From: Thermosporothrix hazakensis
GTDB taxonomy: Bacteria; Chloroflexota; Ktedonobacteria; Ktedonobacterales; Ktedonobacteraceae
NCBI RefSeq assembly: GCF_003253565.1
Contig: NZ_QKUF01000002.1
Span: forward strand, 124,001 to 188,000
DNA length: 64,000 nucleotides
Direction: 5' to 3'
The notes beneath the pieces are model-generated. The model did no database searches. It was not told the DNA's origin and saw nothing but the letters and a program-made list of their open reading frames with translations. The translations under genes and the position numbers were made by a program. Shown piece after piece: positions 33,084-38,625 of this stretch; position 1 is the first letter of the stretch, and every line of letters starts with the position of its first letter.

Positions 33084-33649
33084 ATGTAAACTGTCCTTTC
33101 TGTTTCATGCTGATCTCAGTGTACGTCCTATTCCGGACAGAATCGTTCCTGATCTCAGACATAGAAATAGTGCAACCGACAGCAGCGACGGAACATCCTG
33201 CTCACATCCAGGGGACAGCAGCAGACGAGCAGAGGACACCTCGCCCTCCCGAGCGGGGTACGGAAGGCCACAAAGCCGGTCAGAAGAAGCGTTTGCAACC
33301 ACTATAAACAAATTTTCTATCATAAATAGTATTTTCTTGTCGATGCAAAATTGCATATTCAGTTTTGTAATGCATATATACTGAAAATAGAGTGTAGTGG
33401 AACCGGTCAGAGTGACGAGGCCGCTGACCGCTTCGCGTTCACTCACTGTTTGGTGGGGATGAGTGCAGAGCTGAACAGGGTTCTGAGCTTTTCCTGCACT
33501 ACAGAGCTCAAGAAGAGAAAGGGAACAAAGCACGCGGTCTGATGGTTTGCTTCGAGCTGTAGTTTGTATGATTTGTTCTGCTCCTCTGTTTGGCTCTCAC
33601 TCGGTAGGCGCTCACCGTGTTGACAGCATCAGATGAAAGGAGACTGATA
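33084..33649. other. 566-bp AT-richer region upstream of lanthipeptide cluster
   Basis: The spacer is clearly richer in A/T between 33300 and 33400 than the genes around it. It holds a candidate promoter (TTGCAT 33351-33356, TATATA 33375-33380), then CGGTCAG/CTGACCG arms at 33404-33430. About 270 nt of leader would remain before the first cluster gene. No regulator gene or trustworthy small ORF is present. Confidence 0.5.
33351..33382 (+). promoter_or_regulatory. Candidate promoter of lanthipeptide cluster
   Basis: TTGCAT, an 18-nt spacer and TATATA (or TATACT two bases further on) resemble a sigma-A promoter pointing at the cluster. It is the best match in the intergenic region. Confidence 0.4.
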
Positions 33650-34042
33650 ATGGACAAACCCATGTCGACTACCAATGTCATGTATGATGGTGATGAGATC
33701 CGTCAGATCCAAATGCTGCTTGTCCTGCTCTCGCACCTGCCACCAGACAGTATGCTACGCGAGATCTTTGAACATGCTATGGCGCTTCCCCATGATCCCT
33801 GGGCAGCGCGCGTCACCCCCGTTACTGATACCAGTTTCTACGGCCTCAAAACCTGGCTGGAATCCCTCTGGGCCCGCGACGGCCTGAGTGCTGATGAACA
33901 GCGGCTGGTCGACTGGCAGCGATCGGGCAAGAATATCGAGATCGCTGTGCGCGAACTCAAGGCAATCCAGCAACTGACAGGCTTTAAATTCGGCATCGTA
34001 GCACTGAACCCCGGACAGCAATCGCCAATGGTCTCCCAGTAG
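33650..34042 (+). CDS. DurN/Cinorf7-like lysinoalanine-forming protein (proposed)
   Basis: The 130-residue soluble, mostly helical protein starts at the ATG with GAAAGGAG upstream. I assign it by position and size: the lysinoalanine synthase of cinnamycin (Cinorf7) and duramycin (DurN) is a protein of about 120 residues encoded immediately before the precursor gene, as here. Recognisable stretches are IRQIQMLLVLLSHLPPDSML, YGLKTWLESLWARDGLSADEQ and the C-terminal AIQQLTGFKFGIVALNPG. DurN joins Lys19 to dehydroalanine 6 of the core. Its stop codon overlaps the ribosome site of the precursor gene (11 nt between stop and ATG), so the two are probably co-translated. I have not aligned it to DurN. 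Confidence 0.72.
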   Translation: MDKPMSTTNVMYDGDEIRQIQMLLVLLSHLPPDSMLREIFEHAMALPHDPWAARVTPVTDTSFYGLKTWLESLWARDGLSADEQRLVDWQRSGKNIEIAVRELKAIQQLTGFKFGIVALNPGQQSPMVSQ

Positions 34043-34053
34043 GAGGTTTCCCC

Positions 34054-34314
34054 ATGCCTGCACTACCATGCGCAGATGAACAGTTGCTCTATCAAGCCGC
34101 CGTTGATCACACATTTCGCAGCGCTCTGATGGAGCAGCCGACCGCGTTTGGCATCGACCGCAACGCCGTGCGGATCCCCGATGCAGTCGAACCACAGGAT
34201 CAGGCGACGCTCAACTTCTGGCGCGAAGCCATTGCCGCCATTGAGGTCTATGGTTGTGTACAGTCCTGTAGCTTCGGACCAATCACAGCCATCTGCGACG
34301 GAAACACCAAATAG
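34054..34314 (+). CDS. lanA: Cinnamycin/duramycin-like lanthipeptide precursor
   Basis: The 86-residue precursor has a 67-residue leader and a 19-residue C-terminal core, CVQSCSFGPITAICDGNTK (codons 34255-34311). From memory cinnamycin is CRQSCSFGPFTFVCDGNTK, and ancovenin also starts CVQSCSFGP. All modification residues are kept: Cys1, Ser4, Cys5, Ser6, Thr11, Cys14, Asp15, Thr18 and Lys19. The leader also resembles that of CinA (FRSALMEQPTAFG and VEPQDQATLNFW are close to FRAALLENPAAFG and VEAQDQASLDFW). Cinnamycin leaders end in an AXA signal-peptidase site, but this one ends EVYG. Mature product should bind phosphatidylethanolamine if the pocket is intact. AGGAGG lies 7 nt upstream of the ATG. 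Confidence 0.95.
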   Translation: MPALPCADEQLLYQAAVDHTFRSALMEQPTAFGIDRNAVRIPDAVEPQDQATLNFWREAIAAIEVYGCVQSCSFGPITAICDGNTK

Positions 34315-34530
34315 CCTGATGCTCGCATCCTCAATGACGCGGATGTAGTGGCCCGACTGTTCGGGCGCTCAGGCAACATCCTCACGGTGGGGGATCAGCG
34401 CTCTTCAGCCTGACCTGCTCTGGATCATATCGGGATCACTCCTGATCGGGGGCTGTTTGCCCACACACCTGGCATGTTCGAGCGAGGATACCACCCGCCG
34501 CCGAGGATATCCTGAATCTTTACAGACTGA
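34315..34530 (+). other. 216-nt spacer between precursor and LanM, with hairpin
   Basis: A GCCCGA-ctgt-TCGGGC hairpin (34351-34366) lies 36 nt after the precursor stop. It has no T-run. It may stabilise the precursor mRNA or partly stop transcription, so that substrate is made in excess over enzyme. No ORF with a ribosome site is seen. Confidence 0.5.
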
Positions 34531-37500
34531 TTGCAAGGAGAGTGCGCGATGTTTCCTCTGGATATTGCCTGTCGCGCCAGCAACCTGACAGAACGCGAGC
34601 AGCTTGTTACAGCGTTGACCGCCAGGTATGCCACGCCGACATGCACCCTCAGCGCCTTTGATCGCTGGAAAATCGACTCGCTGGCCGAAAAGCTCGCCGG
34701 ATACATGGAGCCACAGCGCAAGGCCGAGCTCGTCGCCCTCCTCTCGACATACAAACGTTTTGAACTGGGGCTACCCGCTCTGGAAGAGCCTGCACACGCC
34801 CTCTTTGTCGAAACACACCGGGCGTGGCTTCCCACCTATCAGCAGGCCCTTGAGATTTATGATCACGCCTCGGTGCAGCAACGCGACCCCGATATTGCCT
34901 ATGGACGCTTCGCCAGGGCATGCGAACCCTTCCTGCACTACCTTCACCGTGAGCTGGCGTCAGCACGTCATCGAGCGAACACCCTCAGCGGCTGCGAGTT
35001 CTTCTCTTCCCAACTGCTCGACGACCTGCAACTTCACCTGCTTGGTCGCTTTGAACTTCCGCTTGCCTGGGCCATCGAGACAGATGCAAAGGTCTATTGC
35101 GCCCGCTCTGGCATCAACCGCACCAGCACCACCGCCGACGACTATATCAGCTACCTGAATGTCACCTTCTCGGATCGGGACGCCTACCACCGCTTCTATC
35201 TTCGCTTTCCAACCCTCGGGCGCTGGCTGGCACAGATCACACGCTTTGTGCTCGATAACGGCTGCATGCTCATCGAGCGCCTCACTCGTGATCGGGAAGC
35301 ACTCTCGGCCTGCTTCTCAGGCACACCGATTCGCCGTATCCTGAGCGTTCAGCCGGGCAAGTCCGATTACCATAACGGTGGGCAGAGCGTCACCACTGTT
35401 CACGTTGAACTGGAAGATGGAACCCCGGGAACCCTGCTTTACAAGCCGCGTTGTGTCCGCTCCGAGGTCGCGCTTGCGGAGCTTCAGCAGCATCTGGCAA
35501 CACGTGGCGTGATCCCGTTCGCGACCTACCTGACCATCGCCCGAGACGGGTACGGATTCGCCGCCATGATCCCGCCCCATCGCAACCATGTTACCTCACT
35601 GGAACAGGCCGCGCAGATCTATGAGGAAACTGGCGGCTATCTGGGGCTCTTCCATATTCTGGGAGGCAGTGATATTCATCTGGAAAACCTGCTTGTGGCC
35701 GATGGCCATGCCTTTATCTGCGATGGTGAAACAATCCTGGGCGTGCTTCCCTGCGGGCAGGAGCAACCGGCTGGCAGTCTGCTCGACTCGGTGTATAAAA
35801 CGGGGCTGCTCGAATGGCCTCGCACCGATAGTACGGATATGAAACTCAGCGGTGTCGCGGGTGGCAAGCCCTTTCAACTGCCCTACGCGCAACCTCGTAT
35901 CAGCACACAACGCCTCTCGCTGGCGCTCTCCGTGAGCAGTGAAGTCGGGCTACATGTCGATCCAACCGCCGCAAATCGAGTGTATTTCGAGGGGCAGCTT
36001 GTCGAGCCCGAAGCCTTTCAGGAGAGCATCCTGCGCGGCTTTGATCGCGTCCATACCTGGTTTCAGCAGCATCCTGAGGAGGCAACCCGTGTCCTCACGC
36101 GCCTCTTCGCTGATGCCTCGGTGCGCTTCATAAGCTGGAGTACGCAGATCTATATGCAATTATTGCTCGCCGCCTCTCATCCCTCCTGCCTGATGGAACC
36201 TCTGGAAGTGGATCTGATCTTCGCAAGCCTGCGGTACCACCCGCGCAAATGGGATCATGGCGGCGCTATGGCTGACCGCGAACAGGCATCACTCTGGCGG
36301 CTGGATATCCCCATCTTTACTGTCAGGGCGCAGGAGCGCACGCTTGTACATGATCAGCAAACGCCTCTGCCACAGCCGCTTGAGCTCTCGCCGCTTGAAT
36401 ATGCCACGCAGCGCATCAAACACCTGACCCCGGAAAACCGGCTCCGCCAGCGCCACTATATTCGAGCGAGCCTCTCCACGGCAGAGGTTCAGAATCCATC
36501 TTTTGTGGCTTCGGCGCTCGACTACGCCCGGCAGATCGGCGAGCAGCTCTGCATGCATCTGCGCCCACCCACGGCCTCCGCCCCGTGGACATCGTACCGG
36601 CTGACTCGCGAGGGCCTGGCCGAGGTTGACATCAGCACCGAGCTCTACAATGGCTCCGCTGGCATCGCGCTATTCCTGGCCTATCTCGATGCGATCGAGC
36701 CTCGGCCCGCCTTTCGTGCAGCAGCAGAACGGGCACTCGATCACGCGATCACCCGGCGCGACCCGTCACAACCTGGCGCATTCCAGGGAATCGGTGGTCT
36801 GATCTATCTCCTCACGCATCTGGCACATCTCTGGCAGCGCCCGGACCTCCTGGTGCTGGCGACCAGACTCAGCCGAGAGCTGGCCACCTTGATCGAGCAG
36901 GATCGAGCATTTGATGTGCTTGGCGGTACCGCAGGCCTGATTCCCGTCCTGATCGGGCTGGCACAGGCAACCACCGACGAGCCGCTGAAACTGGTTCAGC
37001 ACTGCGTGCGTCATCTGCTTCAACATGCTGAACACCAGGGCGACACGCTGAGCTGGCCTTCACCGCATCCCGAAGAGGCAAAGGCAAATCTGACCGGCTT
37101 TGCCCACGGAGCCAGCGGCATCGGTTGGGCACTGATTCTCGCGGGCTGTGCTATCGGGCAGCCTGAGGCAATCGAGGCCGGACGGCAGGCCTTCGCGTAT
37201 GAGGCGCTGCACTTCGACCCCGAAGAACAGGACTGGTACGACCTGCGTACCCGCGGCATCACGCCAAACAAGAAGGGTCTGCATTTCGCCAATGCCTGGT
37301 GTAACGGAGCGGCGGGCATCGGCCTGAGCCGTATTGCCTGCTGGTCGCTGCTCGGCGATGACCACCTGCTCCATGAGGCTTCGCTTGCGCTGGCGGCCAC
37401 ATTGCGCAATTTTCATAAGCTCAGCAATGACACGCTCTGTCATGGGCGATCGGGCAATGCTGAACTCTTCCTCCGCTTCGCCTGTCTGAAGCAGGAGCCC

Positions 37501-37713
37501 GCCTTCAGGGTAGAGGCCAACGTCCAGGCACAGAGTCAATGGCGCTCCTTTGAGAAGGCGCGAAGCTGGCTCTTCGGCGGCGCAAATGTCGATGTCTTCC
37601 CTGGCCTGATGCTCGGGCTGGCAGGCTTCGGCATGCACTTCCTGCGGCTGGCCTATCCCGAGCGTGTTCCTTCACCGTTACTTCTGGATTCTCCGCAGTT
37701 AGAAAGGAAATAA
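34531..37713 (+). CDS. lanM: Class II lanthipeptide synthetase LanM
   Basis: The 1060-residue bifunctional enzyme dehydrates Ser/Thr and forms thioether rings. The N-terminal dehydratase (DUF4135) shows QSVTTVHVELEDGTPGTLLYKPR and the kinase-like GGSDIHLENLLVADGHAFICDGETIL. The C-terminal LanC-like cyclase begins about residue 700 (YNGSAGIALFLAYLD). Its zinc ligands are C924 (WCNG) and C970-H971 (CHG), and GFAHGASGIGWA is also present. Length matches CinM/DurM-type enzymes. In the cluster it should install the three rings of the cinnamycin fold: Cys1-Thr18, Ser4-Cys14 and Cys5-Thr11. It has AAGGAG upstream and is followed 6 nt later by the hydroxylase gene. Confidence 0.96.
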   Translation: MQGECAMFPLDIACRASNLTEREQLVTALTARYATPTCTLSAFDRWKIDSLAEKLAGYMEPQRKAELVALLSTYKRFELGLPALEEPAHALFVETHRAWLPTYQQALEIYDHASVQQRDPDIAYGRFARACEPFLHYLHRELASARHRANTLSGCEFFSSQLLDDLQLHLLGRFELPLAWAIETDAKVYCARSGINRTSTTADDYISYLNVTFSDRDAYHRFYLRFPTLGRWLAQITRFVLDNGCMLIERLTRDREALSACFSGTPIRRILSVQPGKSDYHNGGQSVTTVHVELEDGTPGTLLYKPRCVRSEVALAELQQHLATRGVIPFATYLTIARDGYGFAAMIPPHRNHVTSLEQAAQIYEETGGYLGLFHILGGSDIHLENLLVADGHAFICDGETILGVLPCGQEQPAGSLLDSVYKTGLLEWPRTDSTDMKLSGVAGGKPFQLPYAQPRISTQRLSLALSVSSEVGLHVDPTAANRVYFEGQLVEPEAFQESILRGFDRVHTWFQQHPEEATRVLTRLFADASVRFISWSTQIYMQLLLAASHPSCLMEPLEVDLIFASLRYHPRKWDHGGAMADREQASLWRLDIPIFTVRAQERTLVHDQQTPLPQPLELSPLEYATQRIKHLTPENRLRQRHYIRASLSTAEVQNPSFVASALDYARQIGEQLCMHLRPPTASAPWTSYRLTREGLAEVDISTELYNGSAGIALFLAYLDAIEPRPAFRAAAERALDHAITRRDPSQPGAFQGIGGLIYLLTHLAHLWQRPDLLVLATRLSRELATLIEQDRAFDVLGGTAGLIPVLIGLAQATTDEPLKLVQHCVRHLLQHAEHQGDTLSWPSPHPEEAKANLTGFAHGASGIGWALILAGCAIGQPEAIEAGRQAFAYEALHFDPEEQDWYDLRTRGITPNKKGLHFANAWCNGAAGIGLSRIACWSLLGDDHLLHEASLALAATLRNFHKLSNDTLCHGRSGNAELFLRFACLKQEPAFRVEANVQAQSQWRSFEKARSWLFGGANVDVFPGLMLGLAGFGMHFLRLAYPERVPSPLLLDSPQLERK

Positions 37714-37719
37714 GCAGCT

Positions 37720-38625
37720 ATGTCTATCCAAACCTGCACCACTTTTCTTCACGAGATCCTCTCTTCAACTGAGCTCAGGCAGCAAATGAAGGCAGTAACG
37801 GATACCAGAGAAATTATTGAGCTCGGGCGCAAATATGGCTACATCTTCGATATGCAGGACCTGATCGCCGCCTCATCCTCATTCAACCAGGAAAGCGCTC
37901 CACACCAGCCGCCACCCACCGAGCAGAAGCCCGCCTTCTATCACTATGAATATGATATGGAACAGATTCGGGGCTTCGAGGAGATCGTCAAAGAGCTGGA
38001 GAACCTGAAAATCAAGCCACCCACTGTTGATATGGAGCGCTACGAGCAGAGTTTCCGCACGGATGACTTTCAGTTTCTCTCCCTGTCGCCTGCGGACCCC
38101 GCTTTCGAGGGACGGTACAAAGAGATCATGCAAGCGCACTGGGAGCCTTCCGCCGAAGCGCACGAGTTTTCGCGCCGCGACTTCCATCTTGTCAATCTCG
38201 ATCAGCACATCAACCACCCGGGGTATGAAGCCTACCTGGAAGCCAAAACGCGCATGATCTCCCTGCTGGAAGCATTCTTCGGCTGCGAGATCCGCTTTTC
38301 GGGCAGTATGTGGTATCCGCCCTTTGCCTACCGCCTCTGGCATACGAACGAATCCCAGGCGGGTTGGCGCATGTACCTGATCGACTTTGACACGCCTTCC
38401 GGTGGCGGGCGTTCCTTCTTCCGCTACATGAATCCGGAAAACAAGGAGATTGTCACGCTGGAAGAGCGCCCGAAGATAGCCCGCTTCTTCAAAATTGAGC
38501 AGGCAAAGGAAAAGCTCTTCTGGCACTGTATTGCCAATGCCAGCATGCGAAACCGCTGGAGCTTTGGCTTCATCGTTCCTGATAACTGGCTTGAGCGCTT
38601 CCCACAGCAAGACAACCCGATCTGA
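37720..38625 (+). CDS. CinX/DurX-like aspartate hydroxylase with Nif11-like N-terminus
   Basis: The 301-residue protein is assigned as the 2-oxoglutarate/Fe(II) enzyme that hydroxylates Asp15 of the core, by its position directly after lanM and its candidate iron ligands H208 and E211 (LWHTNE) and H269 (FWHCIAN). R279 near the end (RNRWSFGF) could bind 2-oxoglutarate. The first 60 residues look like a Nif11 leader-peptide domain (STELRQQMKAVTDTREIIELGRKYGYIFDMQDLIAAS), followed by a Pro/Gln linker. This domain usually marks precursor leaders; here it may help dock the enzyme on substrate or LanM. I cannot tell whether characterised CinX proteins carry the same extension. Confidence 0.82.
   Translation: MSIQTCTTFLHEILSSTELRQQMKAVTDTREIIELGRKYGYIFDMQDLIAASSSFNQESAPHQPPPTEQKPAFYHYEYDMEQIRGFEEIVKELENLKIKPPTVDMERYEQSFRTDDFQFLSLSPADPAFEGRYKEIMQAHWEPSAEAHEFSRRDFHLVNLDQHINHPGYEAYLEAKTRMISLLEAFFGCEIRFSGSMWYPPFAYRLWHTNESQAGWRMYLIDFDTPSGGGRSFFRYMNPENKEIVTLEERPKIARFFKIEQAKEKLFWHCIANASMRNRWSFGFIVPDNWLERFPQQDNPI

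What the first reader, a model, noticed from the sequence alone, without database searches (positions are those of the whole stretch)
37720..38625. Nif11-like domain fused to a CinX-type aspartate hydroxylase
The first 60 residues match the Nif11 leader-peptide pattern, a domain normally found on RiPP precursors rather than on tailoring enzymes. A Pro/Gln linker separates it from the putative Fe(II) enzyme. It might mimic a leader to bind LanM or act as a built-in recognition element.
Basis: partly seen in the sequence, partly recalled or inferred. Interest (0 to 1): 0.6.

Follow-up and report, generated by a model that had tools for sequence, protein, structure and literature searches.

The report
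Nif11 domain on cinnamycin-type aspartate hydroxylase
The enzyme that adds a hydroxyl group to a cinnamycin-like antibiotic peptide carries at its front end a small domain better known from peptide leaders; this is real, but it is a standing feature of this enzyme family and not an oddity of this genome, and what it does has not been tested.

Summary
Residues 1-48 of the 301-aa protein match Pfam Nif11 above its cut-off (37.0 vs 23.8 bits). TIGR03798, the leader model, matches below its cut-off. A Pro-rich low-confidence linker and a PHD2/P4H-like 2-oxoglutarate oxygenase fold follow. The gene is the last of a four-gene cinnamycin-type cassette DurN-precursor-LanM-CinX.

The surprise shrinks on comparison. 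All 28 intact CinX genes read here (window, 26 from one Actinomadura-containing family, one more from a class draw) carry the Nif11 domain.

What is striking: in 26 of 27 genomes with CinX searched, Nif11 was found only on CinX (27 places), and the genome with a decayed CinX had none. The cognate precursor leader is not Nif11 but DurB-like, and profile comparison of the two is not significant. So 'mimic of the cognate leader' has no support. I favour a built-in docking or recognition module of CinX; partner unknown. Side finding: the metal motif is HTN, not HxD, in 27 of 28.

The parts
33650..34042 (+). DurN/Cinorf7 homologue (lysinoalanine-forming protein); open frame begins at 33617, likely ATG at 33650
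   Evidence: PF19375 E 2.7e-47; start read
34054..34314 (+). precursor peptide, 86 aa; core CVQSCSFGPITAICDGNTK at 34255-34311
   Evidence: PF19398 E 2e-38; NF033431 cinnamycin family 95.4 bits vs cut-off 35
34315..34530 (+). precursor-LanM gap that folds strongly (z -3.2); its place corresponds to the attenuator described between cinA and cinM
   Evidence: 34310-34540 folded; attenuator described in PMC5408092 (passages)
34549..37713 (+). class II lanthionine synthetase LanM; open frame begins at 34531 (TTG), likely ATG at 34549
   Evidence: TIGR03897 533.9 bits vs cut-off 304
37720..37863 (+). Nif11 domain of CinX, residues 1-48
   Evidence: PF07862 E 4.2e-9; four helices, block pLDDT 91-96
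37876..37941 (+). linker, residues 53-74, Pro/Gln rich, variable in length and sequence among relatives (mean identity 0.25)
37942..38595 (+). 2-oxoglutarate oxygenase-fold catalytic domain, residues 75-292; H208-T209-N210 (38341-38349), H269 (38524-38526), R279 (38554-38556)
   Evidence: PHD2 and P4H matches, Z about 10; conservation

Best explanation
The gene is a CinX-type aspartate beta-hydroxylase of a cinnamycin-like lanthipeptide cassette. Its C-terminal oxygenase domain hydroxylates the Asp of the core's C-D-G motif (shown for CinX/DurX in print; inferred here). Its N-terminal Nif11 domain is a standard, separately folded part of CinX, tethered by a variable linker. It most likely serves as a docking or substrate-recognition module that brings the oxygenase to the precursor (leader or partly modified peptide) or to the LanM/DurN machinery. 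That it folds and is conserved is supported by the calls; that it docks, and to what, is inferred.
For: Nif11 in 27 of 27 aligned CinX and in L060, although the linker beside it is unconstrained (mean identity Nif11 0.54, linker 0.25, catalytic 0.67; 22 taxa). Invariant residues M1 S2 F9 T27 E31 G40 F43 L48. High-confidence helical domain plus low-confidence linker. Nif11 appears in these genomes only on CinX: 27 places in 26 of 27 genomes, none in the decayed one. In 80 CinX-negative genomes of the same family draw there was one marginal match, inside a long frame that reads as a secreted peptidase. N-A-M-X order in 21 of 22 CinX loci read around and in the window.
Against: No partner signal: distances of the Nif11 part correlate with LanM, DurN, leader and core alike after removing the catalytic part (partial r 0.17-0.62). 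pLDDT of the domain is higher in the full protein (91-96) than alone (about 80-87), which could mean that it packs on the catalytic domain and merely stabilises it. The orphan CinX of G882 keeps the domain with no DurN, precursor or LanM on its 16.5-kb contig. No complex could be modelled.
Confidence: 0.45

Rival explanations
1. Structural accessory: the Nif11 domain packs against the oxygenase domain and stabilises or caps it, with no partner outside CinX.
For: pTM 0.87 for the whole model and higher pLDDT of the domain in context than alone; kept in the orphan CinX of G882.
Against: The linker between the two parts is low in confidence and ranges widely in length, which suits a mobile module better; pLDDT is no measure of contact.
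Confidence: 0.27
2. Leader mimic: the domain imitates a RiPP leader and docks CinX onto the leader site of LanM, so that hydroxylation is coupled to lanthionine formation.
For: The family is that of RiPP leaders; helix 1 of the domain and of the cognate leader run in the same register (FLRxAxxDxxxR against xLRxAxADxxFR).
Against: hhalign probability 1.2, P 0.042, against 0.084 for DurN as control; the cognate leader belongs to another family; no Nif11 leader found in 27 genomes.
Confidence: 0.15
3. Relic: the domain is left over from an old fusion with a Nif11 gene and has no present role.
For: Other Nif11 fusions exist (TIGR03890, a Nif11/cupin family, listed).
Against: Kept in 28 of 28 intact genes with eight positions invariant in 27 of 27 while the adjoining linker drifts.
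Confidence: 0.08
4. Chance or over-sensitive profile match of an ordinary helical N-terminus.
For: TIGR03798 score of the window protein is below its cut-off.
Against: Pfam score 13 bits over its cut-off over the whole model, 27 of 27 relatives, match to the solved Nif11 protein 9zn4.
Confidence: 0.03

Closest known systems
CinX / DurX / KyaX (Asp15 hydroxylases of cinnamycin, duramycin, kyamicin)
   Same: Same place in a N-A-M-X gene order and similar length (KyaX 302 aa, CinX 325, DurX 327; PMC6974636 Table 1, passages)
   Different: Their sequences were not in hand, so that they carry Nif11 is inferred from length and from the 28 relatives read here
CinX homologue of the coerumycin organism Actinomadura coerulea
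   Same: CinX of G940 is in alignment A1 and has the domain; its contig length 8,190,213 equals the DSM 43675 genome length in PMC12837462 Table 1
   Different: Actinomycete cluster; the identity of G940 rests on that length alone
Nif11 leader peptides (TIGR03798, e.g. prochlorosin precursors)
   Same: Same small helical domain at the N-terminus
   Different: No double-Gly cleavage site or core follows; an oxygenase does; score below the family cut-off
Nif11/cupin family TIGR03890
   Same: Nif11 in front of another (cupin) domain, by its name
   Different: Only a hit of E 0.14 in the Nif11 part; other family behind it
HIF prolyl hydroxylase PHD2 and Pseudomonas P4H
   Same: Fold of residues 70-289 (Z about 10, rmsd about 4, 8-12% identity)
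   Different: PHD2 has HxD (recalled); CinX has HTN

Membership tests
Nif11 domain (PF07862) | Score over the Pfam gathering cut-off | tested here: met
   37.0 vs 23.8 bits
Nif11 leader peptide family (TIGR03798) | Score over the NCBIfam cut-off | tested here: not met
   26.0 vs 32.3 bits
Nif11 leader peptide family (TIGR03798) | Leader followed by a Gly-Gly type cleavage site and a short core | tested here: not met
   Linker and a 230-aa oxygenase domain follow
CinX-type aspartate hydroxylase | Encoded behind DurN, cinnamycin-type precursor and LanM | tested here: met
   same order in 21 of 22 other loci
CinX-type aspartate hydroxylase | Homology along the whole length to CinX-like proteins of other cinnamycin-type clusters | tested here: met
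   46-53% identity to the 26 others in A1
CinX-type aspartate hydroxylase | Hydroxylates Asp15 of the core | not testable with these tools
   Core keeps the C-D-G site; activity reported for CinX and DurX
Fe(II)/2-oxoglutarate oxygenase fold | Double-stranded beta-helix fold | tested here: met
   PHD2, P4H, Tpa1, FTO at Z 9-10
Fe(II)/2-oxoglutarate oxygenase with 2-His-1-carboxylate triad | HxD/E motif | tested here: not met
   HTN in 26 of 27 of A1, HTS in one, HTN in L060; the role of neighbouring E211 was not tested

The most novel reading that the evidence does not exclude
CinX carries its own leader-type domain: a RiPP leader fold turned into an enzyme's docking arm, which seats the hydroxylase on LanM or on the precursor so that hydroxylation is timed against ring formation. 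It would be a natural case of an enzyme-borne leader, beside the known RRE.
Probability: 0.2. Interest if true: 0.7.

Novelty: new member of a known kind. Interest (0 to 1): 0.4.

Why it matters
CinX/DurX is one of the enzymes that people want to reuse to hydroxylate designed peptides; a family-wide extra domain is an unexamined handle on its substrate choice. If it docks, a leader-type fold would have been turned into an enzyme part. The clean profile (Nif11 only on CinX in these genomes) makes the question testable by one truncation. The HTN metal motif is a second, independent question about the same enzyme.

Tried and rejected
Leader homology: hhalign of the CinX Nif11 profile with the precursor profile, DurN as control; not significant. 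Partner search by partial Mantel test on 22 taxa; all partners correlate, none stands out. Fold search with the Nif11 model alone: 7 matches, best E 6.3, nothing usable; the profile search found 9zn4 instead. Sampling outside the Actinomadura family: 0 of 394 genomes of the family of G025 (taken for Streptomycetaceae because G025 has many chaplins), but no known positive was in that draw, so this shows nothing; 5 of 394 of the class draw, of which one was new; 1 of 301 in the window's own phylum, the window's genome itself; plasmids, none. The G105 divamide-like locus has DurN, precursor and LanM but no CinX match in the 11.4 kb read. Papers: no held text found that links Nif11 with CinX; the key experimental papers (Okesli 2011, Huo 2017) and An 2018 are not held, so prior mention there cannot be excluded.

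Rows dropped before counts: L013 and L032 (same genes as L001 and L002) and L034 (decayed) were left out of A1.

Full report
WHAT IS THERE. The window holds a compact cinnamycin-type cassette on the plus strand: a DurN/Cinorf7 homologue, an 86-aa precursor with the core CVQSCSFGPITAICDGNTK, a class II LanM, and the 301-aa protein of the finding. The gene starts 6 bases behind the LanM stop. Upstream neighbours with Pfam names are an esterase, a bacterial PH domain protein and a DUF3224 protein; downstream on the other strand are three lactate-utilisation (LutABC-like) genes. I saw no transporter, SARP regulator or lipid methyltransferase beside the cassette, by reading the open frames and the proteins; not every frame was scanned.

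THE NIF11 DOMAIN IS REAL. PF07862 matches residues 1-48 over the full model with 37.0 bits against a cut-off of 23.8. The RiPP leader model TIGR03798 matches with 26.0 bits, under its cut-off of 32.3. The AlphaFold model, built on 27 sequences, gives four helices with block pLDDT 91-96, a weak linker, and an oxygenase domain. A profile of the domain picks out one solved protein named Nif11 domain-containing protein, 9zn4 (E 1.2e-4).

IT IS A FAMILY FEATURE. CinX relatives were found in two named Actinomadura genomes and in 26 of 298 genomes of their family. After dropping two duplicates and one decayed gene, 26 genes plus the window gave alignment A1. Pfam Nif11 matches 27 of 27, TIGR03798 27 of 27 at E 0.01 or better. 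A class-wide draw searched with the catalytic part alone, so that a CinX without the domain could be found, gave 5 of 394 genomes; the one new gene, L060, also has the domain. So 28 of 28 intact genes. In the window's own phylum only its own genome has CinX, 1 of 301. KyaX, CinX and DurX have 302, 325 and 327 residues, which fits, but their sequences were not read.

NIF11 IS OTHERWISE ABSENT. In 27 genomes (the window's and the 26 above) PF07862 was found at 27 places in 26 genomes; comparing coordinates, each is the start of a CinX gene (G882 has two); the genome with the decayed gene, G863, has none. In 80 CinX-negative genomes of the same family draw there was one marginal match, E 8e-4, inside a long frame that reads as a secreted peptidase (my reading). 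The domain thus travels with CinX, and these hosts have no Nif11 precursors that the search could see.

IS IT A LEADER MIMIC? The cognate leader is DurB-like (PF19398) and of the cinnamycin family NF033431, with a faint NHLP match of 16.7 bits under a cut-off of 50.9. The profile comparison of domain and precursor aligned 18 columns in a suggestive register (helix 1), but with probability 1.2 and P 0.042, against 0.084 for the DurN control. That is no evidence of homology. Haft and others noted likeness of NHLP and Nif11 leaders in one motif (PMC2887384, passages).

HOW IT MAY WORK. The oxygenase part has the PHD2/P4H fold (Z about 10). Deletion of cinX gives inactive deoxycinnamycin (PMC5408092, passages), and DurX needs the Gly next to the Asp (PMC10373908, passages). 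The conserved domain on a free-looking linker suggests docking or recognition; an NHLP leader, which is folded, contacts its cyclodehydratase through helix 1, whereas the brominase SrpI does not touch the folded part (PMC12455567, passages), so fold-to-fold contact is plausible but not the rule. The counter-evidence is set out under the explanations: no partner stands out, the domain is better predicted in context than alone, and an orphan CinX keeps it.

SECOND FEATURE. The expected HxD metal motif reads H-T-N in 26 of 27 of A1 and in L060; the exception, H-T-S, is L035, the orphan CinX of G882. E211 behind it is E in 25 of 27, R or K in two. H269 and R279 are invariant. The decayed copy in L034 reads HTD. 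Whether E211, water or something else replaces the carboxylate cannot be told from sequence. Human AspH, also an aspartate hydroxylase, is recalled to lack this carboxylate too; this comes from memory, not from a call.

VERDICT. A sound observation with an over-reading: an ordinary member of the CinX family with its ordinary, if little discussed, Nif11 domain, sitting in a host phylum where it was otherwise not met in the draw. No held paper found here mentions the domain on CinX, but the main biochemical papers could not be read.

Noticed in passing
38341-38349: Metal motif HTN in place of HxD in a 2-oxoglutarate oxygenase; conserved in 27 of 28 intact CinX, HTS only in an orphan copy.
   Followed up: partly
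34315-34530: Gap between precursor and LanM folds strongly as RNA (z -3.2, 1 of 200 shuffles as good), where cinA-cinM has an attenuator.
   Followed up: partly
33617-38625: Cinnamycin-type cassette in the window's genome, the only one of 301 genomes drawn from its phylum with CinX; no transporter or immunity gene seen beside it.
   Followed up: partly
L006 1188-1833, L007: G105 carries a divamide-like precursor with DurN, LanM and an ABC transporter but no CinX match in the stretch read.
   Followed up: partly
L034: Decayed cluster in G863: LanM start joined to the end of CinX in another frame, Nif11 part gone.
   Followed up: partly
L075 7703-8642: Orphan second CinX of G882 with Nif11 but no DurN, precursor or LanM on a 16.5-kb contig; a SARP-type regulator lies upstream.
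   Followed up: partly
L060 2352-3023: Gene behind CinX in G1625 matches VWA7_N and weakly Het-C.
   Followed up: no
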